Shown one piece after another: positions 12,434-54,452 of a DNA stretch of 64,000 bases. The position numbers were made by a program, and so were the translations under genes. The DNA is taken from the NCBI GenBank assembly GCA_905221605.1, contig CAJNDS010000757.1, positions 197,001 to 261,000 on the forward strand, read 5' to 3'. The first letter of the stretch is position 1. Each line of letters opens with the position of its first letter. The DNA comes from Symbiodinium natans. Its lineage: Eukaryota > Sar > Dinophyceae > Suessiales > Symbiodiniaceae. The notes beneath the pieces are model-generated. The model ran no database searches and was not told the DNA's origin. It was given only the letters and a program-made list of their open reading frames with translations.

Positions 12434-12508
12434 ATGGCGCACGTGACCTTCATTGCGAGGAGCATGGATGGCCTAATCCTGGTCGAAACCTGGGACGACT
12501 CCAACAAG
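12434..12508 (+). CDS. SEC22: SEC22 exon 1: start and longin strand 1
   Basis: The ATG at 12434 begins MAHVTFIARSMDGLILVETW, matching the conserved SEC22 start (M-x-x-x-T-x-IARxxDGLxL). A GC donor (AACAAG|GCCCGG) ends it in phase 0 after DDSNK. TTTAGGG begins 8 bp into the intron. The AG at 12427-12428, six bases before the ATG, is a possible trans-splice acceptor if a spliced leader is used. Confidence 0.93.
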
Positions 12509-13496
12509 GCCCGGAGTTTAGGGTTATAGGGTTTAGGGTTCAGGGAACCCTGCATAAACCGCATAAACCCTGAAACCCTCTAGGGATCCTTACTAAGCCG
12601 CATAACCTTAAAACCCTATAGGGAACCCTTCACAAACCTTACAAACCCTAAAACCTATAAACCCTGCAGAATCCTTATTACCGACAGACCCTACAGAAGA
12701 CCTGCCGTTGTAGGGTTTAGGGTTTGAGTTTAGGGTTTAGGGTTTAGGTTTAGGGGTTTAGGGTTTAGGGTTTAGGGTTTAGGGTTTAGGGTTTAGGGTT
12801 TAGGGTTTAGGGTTTAGGGTTTAGGGTTTAGGGTTTAGGGTTTAGGGTTTAGGGTTTAGGGTTTAGATCCCACCGGGCAACCCCAAACAGCCACTTCAGG
12901 GGCATAAGAAGGGAGCCCTAGAAGGGACCCTTATTCCCCTAAACCCTAAACCCTAAACCCTAAAACCTAAACCCTACAGCCCCTAAACTTTGGACCTTAA
13001 GCGCAGACAGCGAGTGCCCCCCCCCCCCCCCCCCTGTGTGCCCATCTCCTCTGCCTCTGTTTCATGGATTCAGGGGTCCACAAAACCCTCAAGCCCAAAA
13101 GTTTGGTAAGCCCTCAACCCTAAACCCTAAACACCACCTAAAGCCCACAACACCCTAAGCTTTCTACACCCTAAAATCTACCCAAACCCCTAGACACCCT
13201 AAGCTCTAAATACCCCAACACCTAGCGCCCCAAGCCCTAAACCCCACGCACCCAAAGCTCCCTAACCCGCCTAGACCTGATACGCCCACACCCCAAAGCT
13301 GAAATTCATAAAGCCCCCACCCCTAAGACCCCCAACCCCCAAACCCTTCGACCCTAAACCGCAAACCCTTAAAACCCAAACCCCTAGACCCAAAACCTAA
13401 ACCCCAAACCCCTAAACCCTTAGATCCCAAATCTCAAACCCCCGAACCCTCAAACCCCAAGCCCCAAACCCAGGGGCCGCAATTCGGAGAGCCGAG

Positions 13497-13557
13497 GTTT
13501 CAAAGCAGGTCAAGGATCAGGCCAAGCAGCTCCTAAGATCTTTGGCCTTCATCTCCG
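13497..13557 (+). CDS. SEC22: SEC22 exon 2: longin helix
   Basis: CCGAG|GTT opens it. It encodes VSKQVKDQAKQLLRSLAFIS, matching the SEC22 helix Q-AKQLFRKL. A GC donor (TCCG|GCTTAAGG) gives phase 1. Some SEC22 residues normally found between this helix and the FHY strand are missing, so the loop is short or another micro-exon exists in intron 2. Confidence 0.9.
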
Positions 13558-15858
13558 GCTTAAGGTTTAGGGTTTAGGGTTTAGGGTTTAGGGTTTAGGG
13601 TTTAGGGCTCTATAGTTCCTTGATATGGTCCCTTACCTTGTGAGAAGGGTTCTGAAGTATTGGCCCTTGGGTTGTATAGGGCATGTAAGGGGTATAGAAG
13701 GGTTGCGAAATTAAGTGCCCATACTGCTACCATTAGCTTAAGAACCCCCCCCCCCCAAAAAAAAAAAAAATGAAAAGAAAACTATGTTACCCTTGCATGG
13801 AAGAATGTTTTTTTGCTGTTTTTAAGCAAATAGTAGATTAAGGGGCCATGTCTCTGCCCTTAGGCTGCTTCTCCTTCGGGGCTCAGACTATAAGAAGGCT
13901 TTTTCCTTGTGGTTGTAGGGTTCAAAGTGTTTACAGGGTTGGTACTCTAAACCCTAAACCCTTAACCCCCCTACACCTTGAGCCCTAAACTGTTTAGGAA
14001 CTGGGTTTTGCGGTTTGGCGGGCTGAGGGTTCAGGGATGTGGGCAAGGGGCAGCAGCAGGGCTCTAAGGTGAAGGGGCTCGACGTCCGGTTTCCAGGGCC
14101 TGCAGGGTTTACTACTGTTTGCTTTAGAACGCCCCAAAAGCAAACAAGAATCAAGAATCCCTATCTTACCCTTATCCGGAAGAACATATTCTTGTTTGGT
14201 TCTTAAGCAATTCGTAGTTTAAGTGCTAAGGGCCTAGGGGGTTCGGTTCGACAAGGGGCCCTGGCTGTCTGATTCGGGCTACTTGAGCATGAAGGGACCC
14301 GTGTAGCTGCTCTGGGGGGGGGGGGGATTGAGCTTAGGTACCTTGATTAGCAAGAACGGGATGCAAGCTCTGAAGCTTTCTTCGAAGTTGCGCAGATCCC
14401 ACCTCCTCAAAGCCCCGGCTCCGAACAGCCCCAAAGTAGGTAACGACTTTGGACCCAAAGATAGGTACTATTTGTCTCTACCCTTTCAACCCTAAACTAA
14501 AAAGACTCTAAACCGGGATAGACAGCTGAAACCCGAAGACCCTTTAAGCCCTGAAGACACGGCCCCCCCCCCCCACCCCCAAGGAAAGCTGCACAACATG
14601 CCGCCGAGATGTTCCGTGGAAGGCCTTTTCTACGTTTGGGGTTTGGGGTTTTGGGGGGTTAAACCCTGACGTGGTTGCAGCACTGGCTCACCTAGAACTT
14701 TTGCTGCAGCAAGAAGTGTGCCAAAACACCAACTCAAAACCGCAAAACCCCCAAACCCCACAACCCTAAACACCCTGAACCCTAAACCCCAAACCCCACA
14801 ACAATAAAACGCAACAACCCAACAATCCCACACCCGCCCCGGACCCGAAAAGGCACCACTGGGGAGACTCCTTTCATTTTTTTGGAGGGGGGTGGGGGGG
14901 GGGGGTACATAAAAGGGTCCGTGGGTGAAGTGTGGGTCATATGTGCAGTTCCCTAACTTTAGTCTCTTTTTGCTTGGAATGCTTGATACAGGGCTTTGTG
15001 CTCTCTTTCGAATAAGCAATCCCCTCCCCCCCCCCCCGCCCGAGGGATTTGGGGCTTAGGGTTTAAGAACCGTACAAGGGACCAGAACTCGAAGAACCCC
15101 CTCGCCCCTCGAAGGGGTTCCGGGCCGAAGAGATGTAAACCTACGCCAGATCAACCTGAGACCTTTACTAGGTAGGCCCTTGGGACATTTTATATTTTCC
15201 CTTATTTGGGTTTAAGAGGATCATATTCAGGAATATTTTTCAGAGGGCTTTAGGGGCCAACCTAGTTTAGGGTTGAGGGTTCAGGGTTCAGGGTTCAGGG
15301 TTAGGGTTTAGGGTTCAGGGTTTAGGGATTTTTCTTCAAAGGTGCAGTGGGCTGTCGCTCTGCACGAACTCCAGGGTTTAGGGTTTAGGGGGTCTGTGGT
15401 TGAGCGTTTAGTGGTTGAACTGATTTTAGCTGAACCTGCAAGTGGTCCGTTGCTTGAGGGCCCCGGACCCTCTTTAAGGCTCAAGGTTTAGGGCAGCCCC
15501 CAAACCCTAAACCCTAAACCCCAGACCCCCGAAACCCCAAAACCCAAACCCTAAACGCAGTTCTGAGAGCAGAATAGGATGTAGGGCTTAGGGCGTAGAG
15601 ACATCCTCCGCCCCGCAGAGTCTCTACATTTTTGGTGAAGCGCTTGTGGAGTTTAGTCTTTAGGCTTTAGGCTTTCCTAGTATGACTAGGACCGGGAGTA
15701 GGCCTTGATTGTCCTGTTTTTAGGGTTGGGGTTCCCTTATAATCCCCTTAAAACCAAAAGGGTGCCCCTTTTTTTCCTGGATTCCTCCCGGGTCTAGTAG
15801 CCCTAAACCCTAAACCCTCATATTGGTCCCCTTATGGCCCGCTTAGCTGTTCAAAAAG

Positions 15859-15897
15859 GAGCAGGCGACTTCGTCTTTCACTACACCATAGAGAATG
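15859..15897 (+). CDS. SEC22: SEC22 exon 3: FHY strand of the longin domain
   Basis: CAAAAAG|GA opens it. It encodes AGDFVFHYTIEN plus G, the counterpart of YVFHYIIE in plant and animal SEC22. The GC donor AATG|GCGCCG leaves phase 1. An alternative acceptor (GAGCAG|GC) would drop two residues without changing frame. Reading past the donor gives AAAMFPKS, which does not fit the family. Confidence 0.9.
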
Positions 15898-15924
15898 GCG
15901 CCGCGGCCATGTTTCCAAAATCCG

Positions 15925-16732
<808 letters not shown>

Positions 16733-17105
16733 TTTTCTATGAGAAGATATAGGAGCTATTTCATCTCCTACTCAGAGATAGAGTAACTCTTTCGCAAACG
16801 AATAAGAGCGTCTTAATCTCCCGACACTGGGTAGGGGAGCTCACATCTCTACGATCTCCTATCTTCTATCTCAGTCTCGCAATATGTCATGAGAGGCCTC
16901 CGCTAGCTTTGCGCAGGAAAAGAAAGAGAGTTCTCTACTATGTCAGTTTTTTCAGAAATAGCTTCTCTATCAATGAAGAGGTCATAAGAGAAGCCCTTTA
17001 TCTCTTCATAAGAAATGACAAAGCCCTTCGAACTTTTTACGAGAGATCTCTCCTTTACCCTAAATAAAACAACTAAACATGTGAAGGCCTTTCTTTACTC
17101 CTTAA
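16733..17105. repeat. Direct repeat, copy 1 (pair with 18083-18470)
   Basis: CTATGAGAAGATA, CTCCTACTCAGAGATAGA, TCATGAGAG, AAAGAGAGTTCTCTAC, GAGATCTCTCCTTTACCCT and GAAGGCCTTTCT occur in the same order here and at 18083-18470, with small indels. The pieces are 1.35 kb apart in the same orientation. No open frame is preserved. Confidence 0.75.
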
Positions 17106-18082
17106 GTGGGGACATTACACAACTCATCAGTTTCTATCGTTTATGTGAGAGAGTCTATTCTATCTTTAAATGGGTCATCTGAAAGCTCCTTTGTCTCTTT
17201 GAAGGGGATGAGTCTCTTCTGAAAAGGCTCCTCCAAGGTATCCCCGCTCTCCTTCTTTCTTTAGGGAATGACAGAGCTCCTTAGCCTTATTTACCCTTAT
17301 TCCTCATGGCAGGCTGCATTGCTGGGGCCAAGGCGCACAAGAAACTTCAAACCAGCAGAGCACGTCTGCATTTCCAGCCGATATGGTCTTGCAGCCGCTG
17401 CAGCTTCGTAGGGCGTGGTCTACGAGACATCTTGAACATGCACACACATCGTCTCTCTTCTGCCGGTCTGGGACACAGAAGACAAGTTCCAACACCTGAT
17501 CCCGAGCATCAGGTTCCTCACAAGTAGCGGTAGGCCCTTCACCCCGGATTTTTAGGGGCTGGGAGTAGTTTTTAACAGGCAACGCGAGGTGGGGTTGGAC
17601 TGCGTAATCTTGCAAAAGTCTTTCTCCCACTTGAAGAAGTGTTTCCTAGAAAGAGATATCGGGAAGGATCTCTCATTTCCTCGAGAGAGGGATCTTTTAT
17701 TGAAAATACAATACATGAGGCTTTTCATGTTCCATTAGGAGACAGAGAGGTCTCTCATTCTGCATTAACAGATCGAGGACATCGTTCATTTCCGTTTTTC
17801 ATTTGCTATGAGAAGGTAGGGGGGCGGGGGGGGGGGGGAATGGGCTCTCTCATTTCCGATTGCGAGACAGAGGGGCATAGAGGGGATCTCTGATGTCTTC
17901 GAAAGAGAGATCCTCCACTCAGGAGGGACACAAGTTATTCCATTTCCAAAAGAATAGAGGAGCTCTTAATGCCCCATCTCTTATTATAAATAAACAGAGA
18001 GGATGACGTCGATTCGTTTCCATTCTTTTGTTCTTGTTTATCAAAGGTCTCTTCGTTTCCTACACAGGACTTCTTTTGATTC
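17106..18082. other. Spacer between direct repeats, no gene seen
   Basis: AT-rich DNA full of short TCTC/GAGA motifs, with a G-run at 17818-17838 and a GC-richer insert of about 260 bp near 17300-17560. Open frames overlap on both strands and none shows a recognisable domain. Confidence 0.5.
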
Positions 18083-18470
18083 CTATGAGAAGATAGAAGG
18101 CTCTTCTTTCGTCTCCTACTCAGAGATAGAAAGATTGCATTGGTAATACAAAAGAAATCATAAGAGCTCTCTCACGCCCTCTCTTTTGTGTCTCGTCAAT
18201 AGGTAGAGAAATTCTCAGCTCTACCGTTTCCTATTTTTTACCTGAAAGAGCTTCTGTCTCTCGCAATAGGTCATGAGAGACCTCCTCTATCTTTTTGCAG
18301 GAAATGAAAGAGAGTTCTCTACAATTTCTGTGTTTCAGAAATGTTTCTCAAGCAATAAGAGAAGCCGTTTGTCGCTTCATAGGCAACGACGGAGCTCTAC
18401 TACCTTTTTTCTTGAGATCTCTCCTTTACCCTCAATAAAAGCTTTGAAGGCCTTTCTCTATCCCTTAGAT
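18083..18470. repeat. Direct repeat, copy 2
   Basis: This matches 16733-17105. The stretch between them (17106-18082) has looser GAGAGATCTCT-like motifs that look like older copies, and a GC-richer insert at 17300-17560. Confidence 0.75.
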
Positions 18471-18474
18471 TGGA

Positions 18475-18800
18475 CCCTAAGAATTTGGGCTACCCTAAGA
18501 ATCCAAAGCTACCCTAAGAATCCAGGCTACCGCCAAAACAAAAAAACACAACCCCAAGAATGGGCTACCCCAAGAATCCAGGCTACCTTAAGAACCCAGG
18601 CTACTCTAAAACACCAGGCTACCACCAAAAAGCAAGCTCAAGCCTAAGAATCCAGGCTTATCGTAAGAATACAGGCCACCCCTAAGAATCCAAGCTATCC
18701 TAAAAATCCAGGCCACCACCAAACAAGAACTCAGCCCTAAGAATACAGGCTACCCTAAAAAGCTTCCCTTAATAATCGAGTCTACCCTAAGAATCCAAAA
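18475..18800. repeat. 17-bp minisatellite (CCTAAGAATCCAGGCTA)
   Basis: Units of CCTAAGAATCCAGGCTA and close variants repeat about 18 times with some spacing. The apparent open frame ending at 18647 reads into this repeat. Confidence 0.9.
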
Positions 18801-18807
18801 TACTAAA

Positions 18808-19005
18808 ATAGAAAGTGAATGAACAAAGTGAAATGAACGCCCCCATTATCTTCTTTCTTTCGCTAAATCACAGATCACACGTTCATTTCATTCACTGTAT
18901 CTGTTGAGATTAGTTGAAAGAAGATAATAGTGGGCGCGCAAAAAGAGAACACAAAGAATGCCCCGTTCATTCGTTCACATGTTCACTTCATTCTCGTATT
19001 AATAT
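18808..19005. mobile_element. Foldback element with GTTCATTTCA ends
   Basis: AATGAAC...CCCATTATCTTCTTTC on the left is mirrored by GAAAGAAGATAATAGTGGG...GTTCATTCGTTCAC on the right around a ~40-bp loop. The arms are imperfect. Likely a non-autonomous element. Confidence 0.55.
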
Positions 19006-19109
19006 TGTAACCTCTGGAATGAATTCTGGGTGGTGAAAAGAATTGAATACCAGAAGTTAATAATGCAAAAAAACAAAATTTGTAACACTTATAAAATAAT
19101 TTAATTCTG

Positions 19110-19300
19110 GTGCCCCCCAAAAGAATTTAATTATTCAAATCAGGGATTTGAGTAATTAACGTATGTAAGTTCTGGGGCCTCCCAAAAGAATTTAATTATT
19201 CAAATCAGGGACTTAAATAGTTAAATTATTTAAATTCTGCGGCCTCCCAAAAGAATTTAAGTATTCAAATCAGGGATTTGAACAATTAAATTATTTATTT
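19110..19300. repeat. ~75-bp direct repeat, three copies
   Basis: CCCAAAAGAATTTAATTATT followed by CAAATCAGGGA occurs at about 19115, 19190 and 19250. AT-rich, non-coding. Confidence 0.85.
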
Positions 19301-19349
19301 AAATTATGCAAATGATTTAAATTATTTGAAATATTTAAATTATTTGAAC

Positions 19350-19537
19350 GGTCTGGCTGTTGGAGGAATGAATTTATTTGAATAATTACATTCGGGAGGA
19401 ATGAATTTATTTGAATAATTACATTCGGTAGGCCCCAAATATAATTTAAATAATTTAAACAGTTTAATTATTTAAAATATTTTGGGGCCTCAAGAATTTA
19501 ATTATTCAAATAAATTCATTCCTCCAACAGCCAGACC
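19350..19537. repeat. Perfect 39-bp inverted repeat (foldback)
   Basis: Left arm 19350-19388 starts GGTCTGGCTGTTGGAGGAAT. Right arm 19499-19537 is its exact complement. A partial third copy of the arm sits at 19394-19425. Confidence 0.9.
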
Positions 19538-19796
19538 ATTTAAATAATTTCAATAATTTATATAATTCACATGATTTAAATAATTTCATTATTCCTTTTT
19601 CCGCCTCATCCCCGCACCCCTTCGCAAGCAAACGAATTCCAAGCCCTCACAGGGGACATACTTCATCAGGGACGCGGGAGAGTTTGAAGTGAAGAAGTCT
19701 CGTTAAATAGCTTAATTCGTTGAAGTAATGGGATTGTTTTACATGAGTATCACTTCCGTGAATAAATTATTTAAACTATTTAAAGTATTTAATTTA

Positions 19797-22700
19797 TTAA
19801 GCTTCCTTCTACACTTGAGCAAACCAGGCTTTATAAACTGTATAAATTTCATAAATTTTATAAAAATTTTCAAAATTTCACCTTAAAGGGTAAGATGTAT
19901 AAAATTTATACAACTTATAAAAAATATTTGGGTTTCAGGCGTCCCGGGAAACTGTAAAATTCATAAAACTTATAAACTTTCTTAAATGTATAAGTTTATA
20001 AATTTATAAAGCTTCCTTCTACACTTGAGCAAACCAGGCTTTATAAGTTATAAAATTTCACCTTAAGAGTAACATTTATAGAATTTATAAAATCTATAAA
20101 GTTTTGGGTTCAGGCGTCCCCGGAAACCTTAAAATTTATTAAATTTATAAAATTTTTTAAAATTTATAAAATTTATAAAGCTTCCTTCTAAACTTGAGCA
20201 AACCAGGCTTTATAAATTTTATAAATTTTAGAAATTTCACCTTAAAGGGTAAAATTTGTAAAATTTATAAAATTTATAAAGTTTTGGGTTCAGGCGTCCC
20301 GGGAAACCTTTAAATTTAATAAAATTTATAAAACCTCTAAAATTTATACAATTTATAAAATTTAAAAAGCGCCCTTCTAAACTTGAACAAACCAGGCTTT
20401 ATAAATTTTATAAATTTTATAAATTTCACCTTAAAGGGTAAAAATTATAAAATTTATAAAACTTATAAAGTTTTGGGTTCAGGCGTCCCGGGAAACCTTT
20501 GGGACGCCTGAACCCAAAACTTTATAAATTTTATAAATTTTATAAATTTTACCCTTTAAGGTGAAATTTATAAAATTTATAAAAATTTATAAAGCCTGGT
20601 TTGCTCAAGTTTAGAAGGAAGCTTTATAAATTTTATAAATTTTATAATTTTTATAAATTTTATAAATTTTAAAGGTTTCCCGGGACGCCTGAACCCAAAA
20701 CTTTATAAATTTTATAAATGTTTTAAATTTTACCCTTCAAGGTGAAATTTATAAAATTTATAAAATTTATAAACCCTGGTTTGCTCAAGTTTAGAAGGAA
20801 GCTTTATAAATTTTATAAATTTTATAAATTTTATTAATTTTATAAATTGTATAAATTTTATAAATTTTCCCCTTAAGGTGAAATTGATAAAATTTATAAA
20901 AAATTATAAAGCCTGTTTTGCTCAAGTTTAGAAGGAAGCTTTATAAATTTTAAAAATTTTATAAATTTTATAAATTTTATAAATTTTAAAGGTTTCCCGG
21001 GACGCCTGAACCCAAAACTTTATAAATTTTATAAATTTTATAAATTTTTCCCTTAAGGTGAAATTTATAAAATTTATAAAATTTATAAAGCCTGGTTTGC
21101 TCAAGTTTAGAAGGAAGCTTTATAAATTTTATAAATTTTATAAATTTTATACATTTTATAAATTTTATAAATTTTAAAGGTTTCCCGGGACGCCTGAACC
21201 CAAAACTTTATAAATTTTATAAATTTTATAAATGTTACCCTTTAAGGTGAAATTTATACAATTTATAAAATTTTTAAAGCCTGGTTTGCTCAAGTTTAGC
21301 AGGAAGCTTTATAAATTTTATAAATTTTATAAATTTTATAAATTTTAAAGGTTTCCCGGGACGCCTGAACCCAAAACTTTATAAATTTTATAGATTTTAT
21401 AAATTTTACCCTTTAAGGTGAAATTTAGAAAATTTTTAAAATTTATAAAGCCTGGTTTGCTCAAGTTTAGAAGGAAGCTTTATAAATTTTAAAAATTTTT
21501 ATAAATTTTATAAATTTTATAAATTTTAAAATTTATAAAATTTATAAAGCTTCCTTCTAAACTTGAGCAAACCAGGCTTTATAAATTTTATAAATTTTAT
21601 AAATTTCACGTTAAGGGTAAAATTTAGAAAATTTATAGAATTTATAATTTTTGGGTTCAGGCGTCCCGGGAAACCTTTAAAATTTATAAAATTTATAAAA
21701 TTTATAAAATTTATAAAATTTATAAAATTTTTAAAATTTATAAAGCTTCCTTCTAAACTTCAGCAAACCAGGCTTTATAAATTTTTTTTATAAATTTTAT
21801 AAATTTTTCCCTTAAGGTGAAATTTATAAAATTTATAAAGCCTGGTTTGCTCAAGTTTAGAAGGAAGCTTTATAAATTTTTATAAATTTTATAAATTTTA
21901 TAAATTTTAAAGGTTTCCCGGGACGCCTGAACCCAAAACTTTATAAATTTTATAAATTTTATAAATATTACCCTTTAAGGTGAAATTTATAAAATTTATA
22001 AAATTTTTAAAGCCTGGTTTGCTCAAGTTTAGAAGGAAGCTTTATAAATTTTATACATTTTATAAATTTTATAAATTTTAAAGGTTTCCCGGGACGCCTG
22101 AACCCAAAACTTTATAAATTTTATAAATTTTTATAAAATTTACCCTTTAAGGTGAAATTTATAAAATTTTTAAAATTTATAAAGCCTGGTTTGCTCAAGT
22201 TTAGAAGGAAGCTTTATAACTTTTAAAAATTTTTATAAATTTTATAAATTTTATAAATTTTAAAGGTTTCCCGGGACGCCTGAACCCAAAACTTTATAAG
22301 TTTTATAAATTTTATAAATTTTACCCTTAAGGTGAAATTTATAAAATTTATAAAATTTATAAAGCCTGGTTTGCTCAAGTTTAGAAGGAAGCTTTATAAA
22401 TTTTTATAAATTTTATAGATTTTAAAGGTTTCCCGGGACGCCTGAACCCAAAACTTTATAAATTTTATAAATTTTATAAATTTTACCCTTTAAGGTGAAA
22501 TTTATAAAATTTATAAAATTTATAAAGCCTGGTTTGCTCAAGTTTAGAAGGAAGCTTTATAAATTTTTATAAATTTTATAAATTCTATAAATTTTATACA
22601 TTTTATAAATTTATAAATTTTAAAAGTTTCCCGGGACGCCTGAACCCAAAACTTTATAAATTTTATAAATTTTATAAATTTTACCCTTAAGGTGAAATTT

Positions 22701-23735
22701 ATAAAATTTATAAAAATTTATAAAGCCTGGTTTGCTCAAGTTTAGAAGGAAGCTTTATAAATTTTTATAAATTTCATAAATTTTATAAATTTTGTAAATT
22801 TTATGAATTTTAGAGGTTTCCCGGGACGCCTGAACCCAAAACTTCATAAATTTTATAAATTTTATAAATTTTACCCTTTAAGGTGAAATTTATAAAATTT
22901 ATAAAGTTTATAAAGCCTGGTTTGCTCAAGTTTAGAAGGAAGCTTTATAAATTTTAAAAATTTTATAAATTTTATAAATTTTATAAATTTTATAAATTTT
23001 ATAAATTTTATAAATTTTATAAATTTTATAAATTTTAAAGGTTTCCCGGGACGCCTGAACCCAAAAATTATAAATTTTATAAATTTTCTAAATTTTACCC
23101 TTAACGTGAAATTTTTAAAATTTATAAAATTTATAAAGCCTGGTTTGCTCAAGTTTAGAAGGAAGCTTTATAAATTTTATAAATTTTATAAATTTTATAA
23201 ATTTTATAAATTTTATAAATTTTAAAGGTTTCCCGGGACGCCTGAACCCAAAACTTTATAAATTTTATAATTTTTATAAATGTTACCCTTTAAGGTGAAA
23301 TTTATAAAATTTATAAAATTTTTAAAGCCTGGTTTGCTCAAGTTTAGCAGGAAGCTTTATAAATTTTTATAAATTTTATAAATTTTATAAATTTTAAAGG
23401 TTTCCCGGGGCGCCTGAACCCAAAACTTTATAAATTTTCTCAATTTTATAAATTTTACCCTTTAAGGTGAAATTTATAAAATTTATAAAGCCTGGTTTGC
23501 TCAAGTTTAGAAGGAAGCTTTATAAATTTTATAAATTTTATAGATTTTATAAATTTTAAAGGTTTCCCGGGACGCCTGAACCCAAAACTTTATAAATTTT
23601 ATAAATTTTTATAAAATTTACCCTTAAGGTGAAATTTATAAAATTTATAAAATTTATAAAGCCTCGTTTGCTCATGTTTAGAAGGAAGCTTTATAAATTT
23701 TATAAATTTTATAGATTTTGCCTTAAGAGTAAAAT
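19797..23735. repeat. AT-rich satellite, ~170-190-bp unit, about 23 copies, two orientations
   Basis: Each unit has two GC-containing islands in TTTATAAA filler: CCTGGTTTGCTCAAGTTTAG plus AAGGAAGC, and GGTTTCCCGGGACGCCTGAA. Roughly 17 units read one way and 6 the other. The first four are inverted relative to most, the switch at 20470-20520 is a near-perfect palindrome with 20-bp arms, and two more inverted units sit at 21540-21790. The open frames within are Phe-Ile-Lys repeat translations. The array lies in SEC22 intron 3. Confidence 0.96.
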
Positions 23736-27296: not shown

Positions 27297-27425
27297 GTTT
27301 AGAGGGTTTAGAGGGTTTAGAGGGTTTATAGGGTTTAGAGGGTTTAGAGGGTTTAGAGGGTTTATGGGGTTTATAGCGTTTATAGGGTTTATAGGGTTTA
27401 TAGGGCTTATGGGGTTTATAGGGTT
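27297..27425. repeat. GGGTTTAGA / GGGTTTATA variant array
   Basis: Nine-base variants of the heptamer occur in two homogenised sub-runs (GGGTTTAGA, then GGGTTTATA), in SEC22 intron 6. Confidence 0.9.
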
Positions 27426-28303
27426 TTTTTAGGGTTTGTGGGGTTAAGGGTGTTCCCTTGAGGCCCCTGGTAGCCTTTGAGCTCGCTGCTTCCGCTGCTT
27501 CTCGTGGGTGCGACTATAAGTTCGGCTTCGGGGTTGGAGTTTAGGGTTTAGGGTTTTAGGGTTTAGGGTTTAGGGTTTAGGATTTAGGGTTTAGGGTTTC
27601 GGGTTTAGGGTTTAGGGTTTAGGGTTCAGAGTTCTTGTTAAGGAGCCTAGATGATGGTACCACAATCGGGTCATACAGTGGACAGCTTCTTGCGGTCACT
27701 CAGTTTCGAGCTCCTTAGCACGAACCTAGGCTTCTCTTGAAGTTAGTCTAGGGTCTACGGTATCATTTACAAGGGGAAGGGCTGGCTGAGGAGAGTTTGG
27801 GGTTTGGGGTTTTGGGTTTAGGGTTTAGGGTTTAGGGCATTCAGGTATTGGGCTTAACCCTAAACCCCAAACTTGAACCCTAAATTCTGAACACTGGACA
27901 CCCCAAGACCTAAAGACTTACATCCTACACCCCCAAACCCTTTAACCCAGCAACCCTACACATCCCTAGGCCTTCTGGGGTATTGAGAATCGGGGGCACT
28001 CCAAAATGCTCAAATCCACCATGCAGGATTTCCCAACCCAATGCCCTATACCCTAGACCCTCGTTGTGGAATCAGGTTCCAGTACGAGGGCTGACGAGGC
28101 CGCCAGGAACACTGGAGTTGTCGCCTTTCGACCGGCTGCCGGAGAAAGCTCACTTCCGCCGGGCTCCGGGGCGGCGCCGGTTTAGGGTTTCGGGTTTAGG
28201 TTTTATGTTTTAGTTAGGGTTTAGCGTTTAGGGTTTAGGGTTTAGGGCGTGCTGCCTTTGTGGTGTTGGCTGAGATTGACCCTGACGTTCGGGCCTGGTG
28301 CAG

Positions 28304-28402
28304 TTGAGCAGACTTGAGACGCGCTGCGATCTGCTGATCAACGCCATGCGGAAGGTCAGCATTGCGCGGCTGCGGAGACGAGCGCTCGTGCCCGTTGTTT
28401 AG
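28304..28402 (+). CDS. Coding-like fragment in SEC22 intron 6, unrecognised
   Basis: GTGCAG|TTG opens a frame with G/C-rich third positions, LSRLETRCDLLINAMRKVSI followed by ARLRRRALVPVV, ending at TAG formed by GTTTAG. A GT donor at 28397 is equally possible. It is basic and helical. It does not fit SEC22, so it is a nested or mobile-element fragment, or chance. Confidence 0.35.
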   Translation: MSRLETRCDLLINAMRKVSIARLRRRALVPVV

Positions 28403-28966
28403 GGCCGGGCGTCTAGTGCGTGAAGTTTCACAGCTAGCGAGCTTAGGGCTCATTTTAGGGTTCGGATCCCAAGCCGCTCTGTTCAAAGGATACCCTGGGA
28501 CCCATAGTCGTAGTTCCTTGGCCCTGAGCCCAAGCCCCTAAACTTTCTTGGGCTGTCTTTGCCCCCCCCCGGTCGTCCCTAAAAAAACCTAAACCCTACA
28601 AACCCCAGACCCTAAAAACCCTAAACCCCCAAAACCCTAAACCCTAAAAACCTAAACCCTCTTAACCTTCAAACCCTAAACCCAGAAAAGTAAGGTATAA
28701 ATATAAAGAAGAGGGGAGTCTGTGCCCCGGAGCCTATTTGGGCAACTAGAATGCCAGTCATAGCCTTAGACAGAACAACACTCCAGATCCTTGAGCCCGA
28801 AGCCCGAAGCCCCAAAGTTTAAACCCTAAACCCTAAACCCTAAACCCTAAACCCTAAACCCTAAACCCTAAACCCTAAACCCTAAACCCTAAACCCTAAA
28901 CCCTAAACCCTAAACCCTAAGCGCTTCAGCAAGTAGATTCGCGACCCCCCCTGCCCTGCTCACGCC

Positions 28967-29464
28967 ATGTCCAACGGGGTCATGACACCCAATGCCAGTC
29001 TGGCAGCGCCAGGCACGCCCAATCTCGCAACAGTGGGGCTGAGCACCATGCAAAAACACATCGTTGAAAAAGCCATACTACAAGACGCCCTAGCAGAAGA
29101 AGCAACGGCCAAGCAGGCGATGAGCCAATCAGAGAAAGTGCTTCTACTCGCCAAAGCTCAACGAGACACCTGCAAGACACGATTACAACTCGTGACCCAC
29201 ATGGTCGCCGAGGCAAGAAGAGCAGAGAAGCAAAGAAGCAAGGCAACGCCCAAGGACAGAAAGCAAGACACAACACAGAAACAAGCAGGACAAAAGAAGG
29301 GAGAAGGCACACCAAAAAACAACACAAACAAGGACCAGGCGCAGGAAGCACCACCACCAACGATGGTGACGAAAGAGAGATGGAAGGAGGCATCCGAGAC
29401 CCGCTTGACGATGAAGACAGGCGAGCCGGTTCGGCTTCTCAGCTGCAAGTTTCGAAGTATCTAG
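28967..29464 (+). CDS. Hypothetical 165-residue Lys/Ala-rich protein
   Basis: The longest non-repetitive frame in the window starts MSNGVMTPNASLAAPGTPNL. Residues 25-85 look like a coiled coil (AEEATAKQAMSQSEKVLLLA, then RAEKQRSK). A Lys/Gln/Asn-rich low-complexity tail follows (residues 90-130). No family is recognised. Four overlapping frames on the other strand reflect the skewed composition. It could be the gag-like or accessory frame of an element, a nested gene, or an exon. The frame stops at TAG 29462-29464. Confidence 0.4.
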   Translation: MSNGVMTPNASLAAPGTPNLATVGLSTMQKHIVEKAILQDALAEEATAKQAMSQSEKVLLLAKAQRDTCKTRLQLVTHMVAEARRAEKQRSKATPKDRKQDTTQKQAGQKKGEGTPKNNTNKDQAQEAPPPTMVTKERWKEASETRLTMKTGEPVRLLSCKFRSI

Positions 29465-30819
29465 GAGTTCATCGCGTAGGAACGTGTAAGAGTGGACACA
29501 TAGTGTTCCATTGCACCAAGATAGCGGATAAACCACACGAGCAGCTGCGTCACGTGTTGTAAAGTGCCTTGATGAAATGCAACAACTAAGGCGCGGATCG
29601 ACGAATGAGGTCGAGCTCGCAGACTGCCATGCGCTATCAGAAGATTTGCAAAGGGTGACTACATTTCGCGTGGATGGATGTCCACATGCGAGTCAAATAT
29701 GTCAGCGCGACTCTCATGCCGCCGAGACCAATGATTCAGCGACGACATTCTCTTCTGTCACTAATTATAAACTGAAACCAGGTTTCAGTCGAAGAGTTAC
29801 GTTTAGGCTCAAGCTGACCCCTGCAGTTGAACTCACCTCTCAATGTATCAGTTGACCATGCCTCCATGCCATGCAGCATGCAGGCGAGAAATGACTTGCG
29901 CCCTGAATGTACAACATGTCCAAGTCAAGCCAAACCGAAAGGATGATTTTGGGTGGAAGTTCACAGCGATTTCGCTGCGCCGATATGGCTTTGGCTCTCC
30001 ACGGATGCCACCGTGGAAACACTAAAGGCGCGCGCGCACGTCCAAATGTATGTAAAAACGCATATACCCACGAACGAAAGGCTCGCCACGTTCAAGCTCG
30101 GAGGCGCCGGCGAAACCAAAGGCCCGAGCGTGGCCTTAAAGCGACGAGCACTTCAAGCCATCGCCCCAAGCAAACCTCTTTGGCAGATCGAGCCGATCTT
30201 CTCCGCAGGGTCGATGCCTGCAAAGGCCGGGAGCTGAAGTCCCCAGCAGCAATGGCGTTGGAATTTTAATCGGCTTCGCCCTTGGCAAATGTGGATGCCA
30301 TTTAGTGCTGTACAGGCTACAGGCTACATCTAGGCATCTCAGCGACCTAGAGGCTACATGCTGCTCATAGGAGTAAAAAAGTAAAATAGGGTTACACCCA
30401 CCCATTGCAGCCTGCACGGACCAACTCAGCTGGATGAAATGCCTGTGTGTAGCCCGACTATGCAGTAGGAACGGGGATCCTGCAGCTTTCGTGGTAGTTC
30501 ATGGAGTAGCAGCGACGGCGAAAGAAACAAGAGCCCAAGGCTCTTGCTGACGTGCAACGTGGTGCAAGCCTTGAGTGCCAGACTTGGGGGTGTAAGGTGC
30601 GGCGTAGTGTAAATGGAGGCGCGAGCTCGTAACGAGAAGGATGGGAGTCATGCGGTGTGGTGGACGGGGGGCTGCACGCCTCACGTGTTGGATCAGATGG
30701 CATGCATGATGAGGCATTGGAAAAACGCTGTGGCTTTTGGGCTCATGAGCTCCAACAACACCTCGTTGATGCCATCCTCATGTGAATCGGCGCGGGCGGT
30801 GCGTAATGACACCACAAAC

Positions 30820-30872
30820 ACGGACACACGCACACACGCACACACACACACACAGACACACACACACACACG
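30820..30872. repeat. (CA)n microsatellite
   Basis: About 25 CA units with a few substitutions. The Cys-Val repeat peptides on the minus strand come from it. Confidence 0.95.
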
Positions 30873-31784
30873 GTTAGCACGCTTTGCAGCACTTGCTTGC
30901 AGATACTCTGGTGTCGCCGAGCCCGACTGGAGCGCAGCGGCAACTTGTTCTGTGAAGTCGGCCGGCTGCGAATCCACAAGGCAGAGAGCTCTAGATAGCA
31001 GGTATTACAGAAAAATTCCTTGAGACGTTAAGCATACCCTGCCAGGAAGCCCTGGTGCTGCCGTTACTCCTGACGCCAAGCGCCAATAAAGTGAAAGTTC
31101 ACCACAACGTGCGTCACGTGGGACTCGGTCCACGTTTCACCCTGTCTCGTATGTGAAGACAGGTCAGTAGAACAGCCGCTGGAAGAAATAGTGAATAAAT
31201 TGTCCAAAATGCGGAATGCCACAAAATTGAGCAAGCAAGCAACGTGTCGAACTAGCAACGCAACTCAAACCTGCATTGCAACAGATGCAGTAAAATTGCT
31301 TCAACACACACATATGGTGATACGCAGCGCGCGTAAAGGAAAAATAGTGGTCTTGCTGTTTCGTTGCTGCGGTGCCTAAATGCACCGCACCTTGCACGGC
31401 TGTATGAAGGTCGGTTCAAGCGCCGACATCCCGCCCGTCTCCTTCGCCCCCCCCATAGCCAGTCAGCATGCCTTTCCTCGTCTGGCTGGACACACAAGAG
31501 GCCGGTTCAGCAGGTTAAAAAATTGTCGAACAGGTCGGTTCATGTCCACCACACACCGAGCAGGTCTCTTACATGATCGAGGAAGACTATGTGTGGGCCA
31601 CCTCGGATTGCTGGGTCCAGAGGCAACGGCTTTCGGTCCGCAACTTTGCAGTGATGGAGCTTGATTGGAGGCATACAGCTACCACCCCACATACCAGGCG
31701 GACGGCGCAACATGTTGAAACGCAATCCAGCGGAAAGTGATCATGATGGTGAGGACATGCGAAGGACAAGGCTTCCACACTTCC

Positions 31785-31895
31785 CGGGGGGGGAGTGGGA
31801 GTGGGTGGGGGGAGCGGGTGGGGGGAGTGGGTGGGGAGTAGGGGAGGAGTGGAGTGGAGTGGGTGGGAGTGGGGGGGAATGGGGAGTGGGGGCAG
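31785..31895. repeat. G-rich GGGAGTGGGTG tract
   Basis: Irregular GGGAGTGGGTGGGG units. The long proline-rich frames opposite are low-complexity artefacts. Confidence 0.85.
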
Positions 31896-32607
31896 TGGAG
31901 AAACCCATCGTTTCCGAGGAAGCTCGCGCAGGCTGGGGAGCCGTCCAAGGAATGGGGCGGGTCCGAACACCCCAAACACCACAAATTTGGTGCATTTCCC
32001 CGTTTTTTGGGGAGTCACTTCTGCTGGGATCCGAGCACTTTTGAGGAGTGGAATGCTGTTTGTTTCTTTGGAAAGGGTTTTGGAGTGGGAGCAGGGGGAG
32101 TCGGGGGGATGCAGGAGGGAAGCGCAGAGTCCTTCTCCCCCGCCACCCCCCTTCTTGTCCAATCCTAAACCCGAAACTCTACACCCTAACCCGAAACCCT
32201 AAATCCTGAATCTTAAACCCTACACCCTAAACCCTAAACTCTAAACTCTAACCCCAAACCCTAAACCTTAAATCCTAGCGCCCAAACCCTGAACCCTAAA
32301 CCCTATACCTTAAATCGCAAATCCTAAACCTTACAACCTGAACTCTTAACTCATGAACTCTAACTTGTAACCCTCAAACCCTAAACCCTTGAACCCAAAA
32401 CCTCAAACCACCTGATGCTTAGAGACTCTGTTTAAGTAAATTGAGCTTGTGAATTCAAAAGAGGTTTATGTAAATTGAAAGAACCCTAAACCCTGAACTC
32501 TAAACAGTCTAAGCCCTGAACCCTAAACCCCAAACCCCTAAACCCTAATCCTAAGCCCTAAACCCTACCCAAGAATCCTAACACCCCCTGAGCCGCACAC
32601 CCGACAG

Positions 32608-32660
32608 GTTCTGTAGATTACAGGTCTCACATTGAGACCATTGCACCTCGGCAACCGGGG
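32608..32660 (+). CDS. SEC22: SEC22 exon 7: linker to the PYxF strand
   Basis: CCGACAG|GT opens it in the required phase. It encodes GSVDYRSHIETIAPRQPG; SHIET(I)A matches NIETAA of plant SEC22. The 3' end is uncertain: GC donors after 32660 and after 32642 both keep phase 0. The exon is 5.6 kb from exon 6, beyond the repeat-free island. Confidence 0.8.
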
Positions 32661-33467: not shown

Positions 33468-33529
33468 GAGAAGCCCTACTACTTCATCAAGTTCGACAGG
33501 CAAATAACGAAGATCCTCGGCATGCAGCG
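33468..33529 (+). CDS. SEC22: SEC22 exon 8: PYYFIKFD strand
   Basis: AGTAAG|GAG opens it. It encodes EKPYYFIKFDRQITKILGMQ plus two bases, matching RPYAFIKFDTFIQKT. It ends with one of the two clear GT donors in the gene (CAGCG|GTTAGT), phase 2. Confidence 0.94.
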
Positions 33530-33900: not shown

Positions 33901-33985
33901 CAAACTACCCTAAACCCTAAACCCTAAACCCTAAACCCTAAACCCTAAACCCTAAACCCTAAACCCTAAACCCTAAACCCCAAAC

Positions 33986-35401: not shown

Positions 35402-35467
35402 GAAGAACGCTGAGTACCGGGACCCCAAGTCCTCGAAAGCGCTCAGCAAGCTGAAGCACGGCTTGAG
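35402..35467 (+). CDS. SEC22: SEC22 exon 9: start of the SNARE helix
   Basis: GGCCGAG|G completes an Arg codon from exon 8, then KNAEYRDPKSSKALSKLKHG and L follow. Ungapped alignment to SEC22 continues into exon 10 if the exon ends after TTGAG. The intron would then begin GGTTTAGGG, with GT one base further on. The exact base is unresolved because the exon runs straight into a TTTAGGG array. Confidence 0.9.
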
Positions 35468-36785
35468 GGTTTAGGGTTTAGGGTTTAGGGTTTAGGGTTT
35501 AGGGTTTAGGGTTTAGGGTTTAGGGTTTAGGGTTTAGGGTTTAGGGTTTAGGGGCTTAGCGGCTTAGGGTCTAGGGCTTCTGGTGTTTCAACCGCAAGCC
35601 CTCTTCTATGTAAGGTTCTTTAATCTTCCTAGCCCCCCACGCCCTAGAACCCCAAGGATTGAGGGTTTAGGGATGAGGTCTAGGCTTGACACGCCGGGCA
35701 AAAGCCCTTAACACGCACCGCTCCCACTCAAACCCTAAACCCTAAACCCTAAACCCTAAACCCTAAACCCTAAACCCTAAACCCTAAACCCTAAACCCTA
35801 AGCCCAGAAGAGTGGAAGCCCCCAAGCTTGAGCCCGATTCCTGCATCATGAACCCGATGCCCCAAACCCTGAAGCCAGAAAGCCCTCCTCCCGGCAAGAC
35901 CTTGAGCTCTCAGGAGCTGAAAGCTGCAGGATTTCAGGTTTAGGGGCCTCAGAGTAGGCCCTAAACCCTAAACCCTAAACCCTAAACCCTTTAGGTTTCC
36001 TAGGGTTTAGCATTAGGGGTTTACAGGGTTTCCGGGTTTACAGGGCTTGAAACCCTAAGCCCTAGACCCCAAACCCGATAAGTCGCAGCATTTCGGGGGT
36101 TTCTTTTTCGAGAGCTGAGGAACAGCAACCTACAGGAGGTCTCAAACATCATGAGGCCGGGCGCCCGGCTTCGGGGGGGTTCAGGAGTTGGGCTTCGGGG
36201 CCTATCAAGGGATGAAGACTCGTACCCGTAAGGTTGCACCCCTAAACGTTCCCTTAATCTTCTACCCTAAACCCTAAACCCTACACCCTAAAGCCCTAAA
36301 GACCACAACCTTAAGGGGCCAGGGTAGAGTCCCTAGAGTTTAGGGTTCCGAGTGGTTTAGGGTTTAGGGTATAGGGTAGCCTAGTGTGCTGAGTGCTGTT
36401 TAGGGGTAAGCGTGGGATGAGCTGAGCTCGGACTCAGGGCTTGGCCCCAAAGAGATTTAGGGCTCAGGGTTTAGGGCTGCGGGTTTGGGAGTGGGGGTTT
36501 AGGTTTTAGGGTTTAGGGTTTAGGGTTCAGGGTTTAGGGTTTCAAAGCCAAAGTATGAAGCTCCAAACTCAGCGAAACCGTACACCAAGCCGGCGCCCCT
36601 ACGTAGGGCTCGGGGTTTTGGCCGCCGTCGTCCCGAGACCCACCTTTAGGGTCTGAGGTTGGGGCCCGAAGCCCCCAACCCTAAACCCTTTAAACCCTAA
36701 ACCCTAAACCCTAAACCCTAAACCCTAAACCCTAAACCCTAAACCCTAAACCCTAAACCCTAAACCCTAAACCCTAAACCCTATA

Positions 36786-37040: not shown

Positions 37041-37056
37041 ACCAAAAACACGACAG

Positions 37057-37114
37057 GCAGAACATCGACGAGATCTTGAAGCGCGGGGAGAACCTTGAGT
37101 CGGTGGGGAGGAAG
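37057..37114 (+). CDS. SEC22: SEC22 exon 10: SNARE motif with zero-layer Arg
   Basis: CGACAG|GCAG opens it. It encodes QNIDEILKRGENLESVGRK, matching NIEEVLQRGEALSALDSK; the Arg in KRG is the R-SNARE zero-layer residue that pairs with three Gln residues of partner SNAREs. A GC donor (GGAAG|GCCTCG) closes it in phase 0. Confidence 0.95.
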
Positions 37115-37830: not shown

Positions 37831-37892
37831 GCCAACAGCATCAAGGAGGAGTCGAAGAAGTTCCGGGGCATGACGCAGCAGCTGAGCTTCCA
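37831..37892 (+). CDS. SEC22: SEC22 exon 11: C-terminal half of the SNARE helix
   Basis: GTGAAG|GCC opens it in phase 0. It encodes ANSIKEESKKFRGMTQQLSF and matches ANNLSSLSKKYRQDAKYLN. A GC donor (TTCCA|GCCACT) leaves phase 2. CCCTAAA is immediately upstream. Confidence 0.94.
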
Positions 37893-38315
37893 GCCACTTG
37901 GGCTCTGGGCTTTTCTGAAAACAGGGCTTAGGGTTTGGGGTTTGGGGTTAAGGGGTTTAAGGTTTAGGTTTGGGGTTTAGGGCGGCCGGTTTAGGGTCCA
38001 TGTCCTGGGAGTTTTAACGGTTTTGGTGTTAGTTGGATTTGTTTACATAGGATAGGGTTTGGGGTTTAAACTTAGGGTTCAGGGTCTGGGGTTTAGGGTG
38101 TGCTAGACATTGAAGGCTTTGCGGAATGTCTGGGTTTGTACAGGGTGCGTGCATAGAAAGTTGATCCCAACCCCAAAGCCTAGACCCGAACCCAAAACCT
38201 CAAACCCTAAACTCAAACCTAAACCCAACAATCCTAAACCCTAAAAACCTAAACCCTGAAACCTGTAACCCTGCAACCCGGCAACCCTTTAACCTGAGCC
38301 CTAAACAAAGCCCAG

Positions 38316-38338
38316 GACGATGTTGCAGAAGCCGCCTG
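38316..38338 (+). CDS. SEC22: SEC22 exon 12: 23-nt micro-exon before the membrane anchor
   Basis: GCCCAG|G completes a Gln codon, then TMLQKPP. A GT donor that is itself the telomere-like heptamer (CCTG|GTTTAGAG) leaves phase 1. A shorter version ending after CAGAA would join QK directly to WAAR, as in the family, but would then lack a normal acceptor. Confidence 0.75.
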
Positions 38339-39442
38339 GTTTAGAGACGGCGGTCATGGGGCTCCCTAAACTCCTTAATTCCTGAACGGTCTCTTTAGGG
38401 TTTAGGGTTTAGGGTTTAGGGTTTATTGAAATTATTCCGGGTTCAGGTTCGGGAAGTTTCGAGGAAAGTTTCGGTTTTTAAACTTTTGAATAATTTCAAG
38501 TTACAGGGGGCTTGAGGGTTTAGGGTTTAGGGTTTCATGTTGCACCAGCTTGAGTGTGCGGTCCGCCCTGAACTGTCGAATGACTTTGTCCTCTTTAGAC
38601 CGTCCCGGGATTTGACATGACCCTAAACCCTAAACCCTAAACCTCAAAGGGGATGAGTAAATATGATTTTGAAAGGGACGGAGAGGCCCTTCAAGCCACT
38701 TTTTGGCGCACCGCGTTAATTTTCACACGACACCCGGAAGACTTGCTCAAATTGCGGACCTCATGTTTCTGCGGCCCGAAACAGTCACACGGTCCTGAAT
38801 AGCCCGGACAACGTAACTGCATTCTGGGGGCTGAGTCCAACATTAGGGTGCAGGGTTCAGGGTTTGGGGATTAGGCCCTTGACGCCCTAAACTCCTTCAA
38901 CCCGATCTGCAGGCTTCGCTTTGCAGCGCACTGTCGATTTAGGGTCTGGGGGTTCGGCTGTCTGGGCAGAGTTATCATGTCGGCTAAGCCCTTCTAAATC
39001 CTGAACCCCGAAAGAGCCCCTGTCTTTCATCGGCTAAATCGAGAACAGTCTTCAAACTCCCTTACCACACTTCCTACGACCACCGAAAGCCCTGTCCTAA
39101 CCCTATCTAAGCTTCAGGGTTTAGGGTCTAGGGTTGAGGGTTGAGCCTGAAGGGTTCAGGGTTTTAGGCTGCTGCCAGTAGCCCAGAACCTCGCATCGCC
39201 CAGACTCCCTCAACGCCTGAACCCTAATCCCTAAACCCTAAACCCTCCTTGATGAAGTATGTAACGACTTCTGGGGGCGGTTGAAAAGTATCCTTGGTAC
39301 CAACTTGCAGGGCTTCTGGGTGTCAGGCTTTGGTGGTTTCAGGGTTTCGGCTCGACTGGATACAGCTTGGAACCCCGAAAGCCCACTTCGCGGAAAAAAA
39401 GACACGCGCTTTAGGGTTTAGGGTTTAGGGTTTAGGGTTTAG

Positions 39443-39534
39443 GGGCTCCGGAGTGGGCAGCTAGGTACGGCATCTTCGTCGTCGTGGGGCTGATGGTGTT
39501 CCTGCTGATCTGCTTCAAACTTCTCAAAACGTGA
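39443..39534 (+). CDS. SEC22: SEC22 exon 13: transmembrane anchor and stop
   Basis: The acceptor is the telomere-like repeat itself (GTTTAG|GG). The exon encodes GAPE, then WAARYGIFVVVGLMVFLLIC and FKLLKT, ending at TGA 39532-39534. This is the single C-terminal membrane segment with a very short lumenal tail typical of a tail-anchored R-SNARE. The next gene's candidate exons begin about 0.2-2.3 kb downstream. Confidence 0.93.
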
Positions 39535-54451: not shown

Positions 54452-54452
54452 C

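What the first reader, a model, noticed from the sequence alone, without database searches (positions are those of the whole stretch)
12434..39534. A whole SEC22 R-SNARE gene hidden in 13 tiny exons among telomere-like repeats
Seen: thirteen blocks of 23-92 nt, each carrying a SEC22 motif in the right order and joinable in one frame (705 nt including stop) from MAHVTFIAR to the tail anchor. Known: SEC22 is a conserved longin R-SNARE of about 215-220 residues with these motifs. Coding sequence is about 2.6% of the gene span, and exon 4 (30 nt) is 8.9 kb from exon 3. No ORF-based caller would find it.
Basis: partly seen in the sequence, partly recalled or inferred. Interest (0 to 1): 0.9.

Follow-up and report, generated by a model that had tools for sequence, protein, structure and literature searches.

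The report
SEC22 gene amid oriented telomere repeats
A dinoflagellate's SEC22 membrane-traffic gene is intact but cut into 15 very short exons, and where telomere-like repeats occur in this genome they tend to face opposite ways on the two sides of short islands such as exons, which may help the cell find its exons.

Summary
The gene is real, but its anatomy differs from the finding. A spliced alignment to a close relative's SEC22 (P0001) gives 15 exons, not 13. The CDS is 678 nt (225 aa) over 27,101 bp; 205 of 225 residues are identical, with no gap. Easily missed exons include 14584-14622, 32608-32642 and a 15-nt microexon at 38316-38330. All 14 introns are non-canonical (11 GC-AG, 3 GA-AG, no GT-AG), and every acceptor is AG|G, as described for Symbiodinium. 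One SEC22 locus turned up in the 759-Mb assembly. The source is a Suessiales-like dinoflagellate.

The new part is repeat orientation. In 20 introns of three genes, exact telomere heptamers run TTTAGGG after the donor (481 T: 31 C in the first 120 nt) and CCCTAAA before the acceptor (48 T: 450 C in the last 120). Assembly-wide, CCCTAAA...TTTAGGG pairs 135-165 nt apart outnumber the reverse order 375,946 to 112,694 (overlapping matches). I read these as strand-specific splicing cues. The orientation is measured; the function is inferred. No transcript of this organism was available.

The parts
12434..12508 (+). SEC22 exon 1 (start codon, MAHVTFIARSMDGLILVETWDDSNK)
   Evidence: spliced alignment to P0001; donor GC
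13497..13536 (+). SEC22 exon 2
   Evidence: AG|G acceptor, donor GA
14584..14622 (+). SEC22 exon 3 (KLHNMPPRCSVE)
15859..15897 (+). SEC22 exon 4
   Evidence: donor GC, followed by the 8,882-nt intron 4
24780..24809 (+). SEC22 exon 5, 30 nt (VCYMALFDK)
25826..25860 (+). SEC22 exon 6 (YPKNLSFCFLE)
   Evidence: donor GC
26942..26990 (+). SEC22 exon 7
   Evidence: donor GC
32608..32642 (+). SEC22 exon 8 (SVDYRSHIETI)
   Evidence: 11 of 11 residues identical to P0001; donor GC
33468..33511 (+). SEC22 exon 9 (EKPYYFIKFDRQITK)
   Evidence: donor GA
35402..35452 (+). SEC22 exon 10
   Evidence: donor GA; this end removes the one-residue insertion of the draft
36120..36155 (+). SEC22 exon 11, start of SNARE motif
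   Evidence: donor GC
37057..37114 (+). SEC22 exon 12 (QNIDEILKRGENLESVGRK, holds the R-SNARE arginine)
   Evidence: donor GC
37831..37892 (+). SEC22 exon 13
   Evidence: donor GC
38316..38330 (+). SEC22 exon 14, 15-nt microexon (TMLQK)
   Evidence: 5 of 5 residues as in P0001; AG|G acceptor, donor GC
39465..39534 (+). SEC22 exon 15, tail anchor and stop
15898..24779 (+). SEC22 intron 4 (8,882 nt), holding an AT-rich stretch at about 18.8-23.8 kb
26991..32607 (+). SEC22 intron 7 (5,617 nt), holding a stretch at about 29.0-32.1 kb without telomere-like repeat runs
8781..11165 (+). gene A: three EF-hand exons (8781-8807, 10416-10470, 11110-11165), two GA-AG introns, used as further introns
   Evidence: junctions set by hand; homologous modules without introns on C1087
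50220..54899 (+). gene B: five EF-hand exons (50220-50302, 51366-51436, 52091-52136, 53953-54002, 54852-54899), four GC-AG introns, used as further introns
   Evidence: junctions set by hand

Best explanation
This is the SEC22 longin R-SNARE gene of a Suessiales-like dinoflagellate, intact and without a second copy found. Its pre-mRNA is cut at 14 spliceosomal introns with GC or GA donors and AG|G acceptors. The telomere-like repeats are not random litter. In this genome they are sorted by strand around exons, with the C-rich strand (CCCTAAA) before the acceptor and the G-rich strand (TTTAGGG) after the donor, within about 150 nt of the splice sites. I propose that this order helps exon recognition. 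CCCUAAAC before an acceptor holds no AG and resembles a branch site (CUAAAC). The reverse strand would place a decoy acceptor, UUUAG|GG, every seven bases. Runs of GGG after a weak GC or GA donor could mark the exon end. Shown: exons, junctions by homology, repeat order and its genome-wide excess at exon-like distances. Inferred: that the gene is expressed, and that the order acts in splicing rather than being a relic of how the introns arose.
For: Gene: gapless 205 of 225 identity; optimal path and controls; domains (226-aa version); one locus among the scored candidates.

Repeat order: 13 of 14 SEC22 introns and 19 of 20 introns in all have more G+T at the 5' end than at the 3' end (60-nt ends, means 0.67 and 0.31; 0 of 4000 random placements in the window outside its AT-rich stretch reach it). 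Exact heptamers 481:31 and 48:450 (SEC22 alone 297:29 and 38:286). The effect falls to near 0.5 beyond 150 nt. 17 of 23 exons lie between a C run and a T run (10 of 15 in SEC22). Inside the SEC22 span the non-exon gaps show no such bias, 5 short (31-150 nt) and 5 long C-to-T against 9 and 7 T-to-C (P = 1).

Whole window: C-to-T gaps 41 short and 17 long, T-to-C 21 and 35 (P = 6e-4). Outside the window: 47 loci, 13 with more than 30 heptamer positions; C-to-T 19 and 7, T-to-C 4 and 15 (P = 8e-4; gaps of 30 nt or less, 2 and 1, left out). Whole assembly at 135-165 nt: 375,946 against 112,694.
Against: Exceptions: the 5' ends of SEC22 introns 3, 9 and 11 carry mostly C heptamers and that of intron 5 none; the 3' ends of intron 14 and of gene A intron 1 carry T heptamers, and the last 150 nt of gene B intron 2 carry none. 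Of six helicase loci inspected I could place one donor (L020), and it is followed by C-type sequence (keto 0.30). The branch-site idea is only partly borne out: a CTAA lies within 60 nt of the acceptor in 11 of 20 introns, and an extra AG lies within 15 nt upstream in 12 of 20 (counted from the list), so no clean AG-free zone exists. At 90-120 nt the window shows no excess of C-to-T (19 against 28). The genome counts are overlapping matches, so they are not numbers of exons. The six introns of genes A and B were chosen and their junctions set by hand with the flanks in view. No RNA data for this organism could be used.
Confidence: 0.55

Rival explanations
1. Relic of intron birth or growth: breaks in genes were healed by telomerase on both ends and rejoined. 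A rejoined break reads TTTAGGG...CCCTAAA, the order seen inside introns, so the order would record history and have no function.
For: The order in introns is that of a head-to-head telomere fusion (recalled). Insertion of telomeric repeats during repair of double-strand breaks is stated for primates and rodents (abstract start of PMC7215372).
Against: Close T-to-C joins are rare: 2 of 62 T-to-C transitions in the window are 12 nt or less apart. Non-exon islands in the SEC22 span show no order (26 gaps compared), although healing should mark any break.
Confidence: 0.25
2. Hairpin or introner-like introns: the complementary ends pair and bring the exons together, as proposed for Amoebophrya introner elements.
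For: Intron ends are strongly complementary (20 introns, median duplex energy -79.8 kcal/mol; composition-shuffled -52.5, random points -56.8). Amoebophrya introners with inverted repeats are reported (passages of PMC7789003).
Against: Pairing is not specific: 5' and 3' ends of different introns give -76.4, pairing across an exon -84.6, and two 5' ends -66.8. After masking the heptamers the SEC22 introns share no sequence with each other at E 1e-4.
Confidence: 0.12
3. Pseudogene or chance patchwork of SEC22-like fragments.
For: Coding is only 2.5% of the span and no transcript of this organism was seen.
Against: No internal stop, no gap, uniform splice sites, single locus found, score 975 against at most 266 in the GC/GA/GT controls.
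Confidence: 0.02
4. The repeat order is a by-product of some other strand bias, such as transcription or replication direction.
For: Dinoflagellate genes lie in one direction over long stretches (passage of PMC4083563), which can give strand bias.
Against: Such a bias would keep one strand along a gene. Here the strand switches at most exons.
Confidence: 0.05

Closest known systems
Sec22b family R-SNARE (PDB 2nup, 8hr0, 1ifq)
   Same: Longin domain, SNARE motif with the KRGE/QRGE arginine region, C-terminal hydrophobic tail; matches over most of the chain
   Different: a longer link before the PYxFI(K/E)FD motif than in the Sec22b chains (draft alignment), shared with the other dinoflagellate proteins aligned; the protein itself is ordinary
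Symbiodinium spliceosomal introns
   Same: GC and GA donors and AG followed by G (PMC4083563 passage; PMC5177918 table passage)
   Different: 0 of 20 introns modelled here use GT; the SEC22 exons average 45 nt against 109.5 bp published for S. microadriaticum; intron ends carry oriented telomere-like repeats, which none of the passages I read mention
Amoebophrya introner elements
   Same: non-canonical introns with complementary ends (PMC7789003 passages)
   Different: there arms of 8-20 nt, varied splice motifs and repeated families; here telomere-repeat tracts, a GC/GA-AG|G rule and no shared intron family
Interstitial telomeric sequences
   Same: telomere repeats inside chromosomes (abstract start of PMC7215372)
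   Different: here dense, inside introns, and ordered by strand around exons

Membership tests
SEC22 R-SNARE | Longin domain at the N-terminus | tested here: met
   PF13774 76.6 bits, cut-off 26.2 (226-aa version)
SEC22 R-SNARE | Synaptobrevin/SNARE motif | tested here: met
   PF00957 56.2 bits, cut-off 26.4 (226-aa version)
SEC22 R-SNARE | arginine at the central layer of the SNARE motif | tested here: met
   EILKRGENLESV aligns with EVLQRGEALSAL of Sec22b; that this R is the central-layer residue is recalled
SEC22 R-SNARE | C-terminal membrane anchor | tested here: met
   YGIFVVVGLMVFLLICFKLLKT at the end of exon 15, hydrophobic by inspection; no topology program was run
SEC22 R-SNARE | function in ER-Golgi traffic | not testable with these tools
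   needs experiment
Symbiodinium-type introns | GC or GA donors besides GT | tested here: met
   SEC22 11 GC, 3 GA, 0 GT by unbiased alignment; genes A and B 4 GC, 2 GA set by hand
Symbiodinium-type introns | G after the AG acceptor | tested here: met
   14 of 14 in SEC22, where the G was not asked for; 6 of 6 in genes A and B, set by hand
Symbiodinium-type genes | neighbouring genes on one strand | tested here: met
   genes A, SEC22 and B all on +; three genes only
Symbiodinium-type genes | spliced leader added by trans-splicing | not tested
   needs transcripts
Amoebophrya introner elements | introns belong to repeated sequence families | tested here: not met
   no similarity between different SEC22 introns at E 1e-4 after masking heptamers; other loci were not compared
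Amoebophrya introner elements | complementary intron ends | tested here: met
   but the pairing is not intron-specific
Amoebophrya introner elements | direct repeats at the exon/intron boundaries | tested here: inconclusive
   short shared AG or AAG at several junctions (sequences), which splice consensus alone would give; no count was made

The most novel reading that the evidence does not exclude
Across this dinoflagellate genome, short exons are bracketed by telomere repeats in divergent order, CCCTAAA-exon-TTTAGGG, and the splicing machinery or RNA-binding proteins read the two strands as separate marks for exon start and exon end, making up for weak GC and GA donors. Telomere sequence would then be a genome-wide splicing code.
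Probability: 0.35. Interest if true: 0.85.

Novelty: new variant of a known kind. Interest (0 to 1): 0.6.

Why it matters
The SEC22 gene alone is an ordinary household gene with the split structure expected of a dinoflagellate. The strand order of telomere repeats around its exons, and the excess of that order in the whole assembly, is a simple rule that could help predict exons that callers miss. It also bears on how such intron-rich genomes with weak splice sites are read, and it makes a question about intron origin against intron function testable by comparing species.

Tried and rejected
A 13-exon model built by hand was rejected after alignment to relatives showed missing stretches. Its exon at 28107 was false. 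A 226-aa version with an extra lysine was replaced after the spliced alignment found a GA donor at 35453. Searches used older exon ends (exon 10 was 3 nt longer); the main counts were repeated with the corrected end.

A TIR-hairpin reading was weakened and an introner-family reading. The telomere-fusion reading was weakened. Eimeria and chromerid origins, early guesses, were dropped: the SEC22 tree places the window with P0001 (98/94), then P0008, then Polarella, away from Vitrella and Chromera. DEAD-box loci (53 matches, 30 loci) were mostly long frames without repeats and gave one donor I could place, against the rule. A coding-score scan did not separate strands well enough to be used (46 plus and 21 minus candidates at score 12). 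A homology search with genes A and B found nothing at E 0.001, so their junctions rest on the homologous modules on C1087 (5 of the loci were aligned). I noticed genes A and B by reading translations with the flanking sequence in view, so their choice was not blind to the repeats. Of the 47 outside loci, 30 came from the helicase search and 17 were placed by me at round positions; two of those (L055, L056) extend stretches already seen to hold repeats, and some loci overlap. L077 was chosen from the hits and is therefore biased; it is in no count here. Rfam at gathering scores and the tRNA scan found nothing in the window. The domain search PF00957 of the assembly found no match, not even this locus.

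Literature searches listed no paper whose title or abstract start describes oriented telomere repeats at exon borders; several lists were cut (for example 15 of 99, 15 of 136, 10 of 164). Only passages of PMC7789003, PMC11453091, PMC9860276, PMC8045281, PMC4083563 and PMC5177918 were read. Roy et al. 2023 (Curr Biol) on dinoflagellate introners was seen only as a reference.


Full report
What is there. The window is C757:197001-261000 of an unnamed assembly of 759,417,921 bases in 2,543 contigs. A protein search with the 221-aa SEC22 draft found 103 relatives at E 0.001 or better; the best, P0001 (225 aa, source 'ena', 3 contigs, the longest 836 bases), covers the whole query. Named relatives include Polarella, Alexandrium, Prorocentrum, Vitrella and Chromera, covering 94 to 99% of the query. 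In a tree of 21 rows the window groups with P0001 (98/94), then P0008 (97/88), then Polarella (92/90), then P0002 (100/96). The source is therefore Suessiales-like. The assembly size is close to that listed for Symbiodinium natans (762 Mb, Table 1 of PMC11453091, passage), but the species is not shown.

The gene. I aligned P0001 to 12301-39700 with a spliced dynamic programme that was run with each of 16 donor pairs and an AG acceptor. GC scored best (928) and GT third worst (620). GC with GA gave 975, and adding GT gave nothing more. With GC, GA and GT the reverse complement scored 225 and eight shuffles 233 to 266. The traceback gives 15 exons: 12434-12508, 13497-13536, 14584-14622, 15859-15897, 24780-24809, 25826-25860, 26942-26990, 32608-32642, 33468-33511, 35402-35452, 36120-36155, 37057-37114, 37831-37892, 38316-38330 and 39465-39534. 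The CDS is 678 nt with stop and 225 aa, identical to P0001 at 205 of 225 positions without a gap. Introns run from 423 to 8,882 nt; 11 start GC and 3 GA; all 14 end AG and are followed by G, although the programme did not ask for that G.

Is it a gene or a relic? The frame is open, domain scores of the near-identical 226-aa version are well over the cut-offs, and among the scored candidates of the assembly there is no other SEC22 match but one at E 6.99 (8 of 9 hits are this locus). That search can miss diverged short exons, and the domain search missed even this locus. I take it as the working copy. There is no transcript of this organism in hand; P0001, which holds all 15 exon equivalents in one reading frame on a short contig, may be a transcript of a relative.

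What is ordinary. GC and GA donors, AG|G acceptors, many exons per gene and genes on one strand are described for Symbiodinium (passages of PMC4083563, and PMC5177918). The SEC22 exons are shorter than the published mean (45 nt here; 109.5 bp in S. microadriaticum). Microexons of 15 nt or less are known in plants (abstract start of PMC8831610).

What is not ordinary. Reading the introns, I saw that exons tend to have CCCTAAA on their left and TTTAGGG on their right. To test it I used 20 introns of three genes: the 14 of SEC22, two of gene A and four of gene B. A and B are EF-hand-like genes whose junctions I set by hand; homologous modules without introns on contig C1087 support the joins (gene A 45 positions without gap; gene B positions 16-96 over all four joins, with two small gaps). 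Exact heptamers in the first 120 nt after donors are 481 TTTAGGG-type against 31 CCCTAAA-type; in the last 120 nt before acceptors they are 48 against 450 (SEC22 alone 297:29 and 38:286). The share of G+T is 0.67 in the first 60 nt and 0.31 in the last 60 nt, 19 of 20 introns in that sense, and none of 4,000 random placements in the window reaches it. For SEC22 alone it is 13 of 14. The effect fades to near 0.5 beyond 150 nt. By the plain measure of which heptamer lies nearest, SEC22 gives T at 9 of 14 5' ends and C at 12 of 14 3' ends. Sequence outside heptamers keeps a weaker skew (0.56 and 0.43). Positions within repeat tracts overlap, so heptamer counts are not independent events; the per-intron sign count is the safer figure.

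Is it about exons or about the repeats? In the SEC22 span, gaps without an exon show no order: C-to-T 5 short and 5 long, T-to-C 9 short and 7 long. Of 23 exons, 17 lie between a C run and a T run, 3 between two C runs, 2 in the reverse order and 1 between two T runs (for SEC22 alone 10, 3, 2 and 0 of 15; the outer flanks of end exons are included). In the whole window C-to-T gaps of 31-150 nt number 41 against 17 longer ones, T-to-C gaps 21 against 35 (P 6e-4). Outside the window, in 47 loci (143.8 kb, some overlapping; 13 with more than 30 heptamer positions), the numbers are 19 against 7 and 4 against 15 (P 8e-4); several gaps come from one locus, so these P values are optimistic. In the whole assembly the pattern CCCTAAACCCTAAA N135-165 TTTAGGGTTTAGGG matches 375,946 times and the reverse order 112,694 times. 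The distance was chosen after the window had shown an excess at 120-210 nt. At 90-120 nt only the T-to-C order was counted (47,188), and in the window itself that distance shows no C-to-T excess (19 against 28).

Exceptions. The 5' ends of SEC22 introns 3, 9 and 11 carry mostly C-type and that of intron 5 no heptamers; the 3' ends of intron 14 and of gene A's first intron carry T-type, and gene B's second intron has none in its last 150 nt. One helicase exon elsewhere has a donor followed by C-type sequence. Many sampled loci of the same genome, mostly genes in long open frames, hold almost no repeats.

How it may work. I favour strand-specific splicing cues. CCCUAAAC has no AG and looks like a branch site, while UUUAG|GG repeats an AG|G acceptor every seven bases and would mislead if it stood before the true acceptor. 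GGG runs after donors resemble known intronic enhancers (recalled). The first idea is only partly met: a CTAA lies within 60 nt of 11 of 20 acceptors and another AG within 15 nt of 12 of 20. The strand switch at most exons speaks against transcription or replication bias. Complementary ends could pair, but as well between different introns and across exons, so a specific hairpin is not supported. A healing-and-fusion origin fits the order but not the rarity of direct joins or the lack of order at non-exon islands.

Verdict. The finding is a real gene with corrected anatomy. The gene is a new member of a known family. The ordered repeats were not described in any title or abstract start listed by my ten searches, nor in the passages read of six papers; I rate them a new variant of known dinoflagellate intron structure.

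Noticed in passing
window 8781-11165 and 50220-54899: Two EF-hand-like genes (A and B) of one family on either side of SEC22; EF-hand matches below the curated cut-offs, modules alike (16 of 42 identical).
   Followed up: partly
G000:C1087:21374-25985 (L059-L069): A run of at least 11 EF-hand modules of the same family in long open frames, unlike the split genes A and B.
   Followed up: partly
window 18800-23800: AT-rich stretch with a tandem array (unit about 172-190 bp) in both orientations inside SEC22 intron 4.
   Followed up: no
window 28967-29464: 165-aa ORF in a repeat-free stretch inside SEC22 intron 7; weak match to DUF4100 below the cut-off, perhaps a mobile element.
   Followed up: partly
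window 57200-61800: Islands reading Lys/Gly-rich peptides such as ESSKGKGASKGAKGKDPFD, perhaps another split gene.
   Followed up: no
window 9179-9405: Long open stretch between two exons of gene A (SRAEERLFTRHVVEFPQPPP...), no Pfam match for the 56 residues tested.
   Followed up: partly
window 62250-63730: Degenerate GGTGGGTAAT-type tandem repeats in both orientations.
   Followed up: no
L040-L056: Of 17 stretches placed by me, 7 (L041, L044, L045, L049, L051, L053, L054) hold under 3 telomere heptamers per kb, 7 (L040, L043, L048, L050, L052, L055, L056) hold 70-188, and 3 lie between: the repeats look compartmented.
   Followed up: partly
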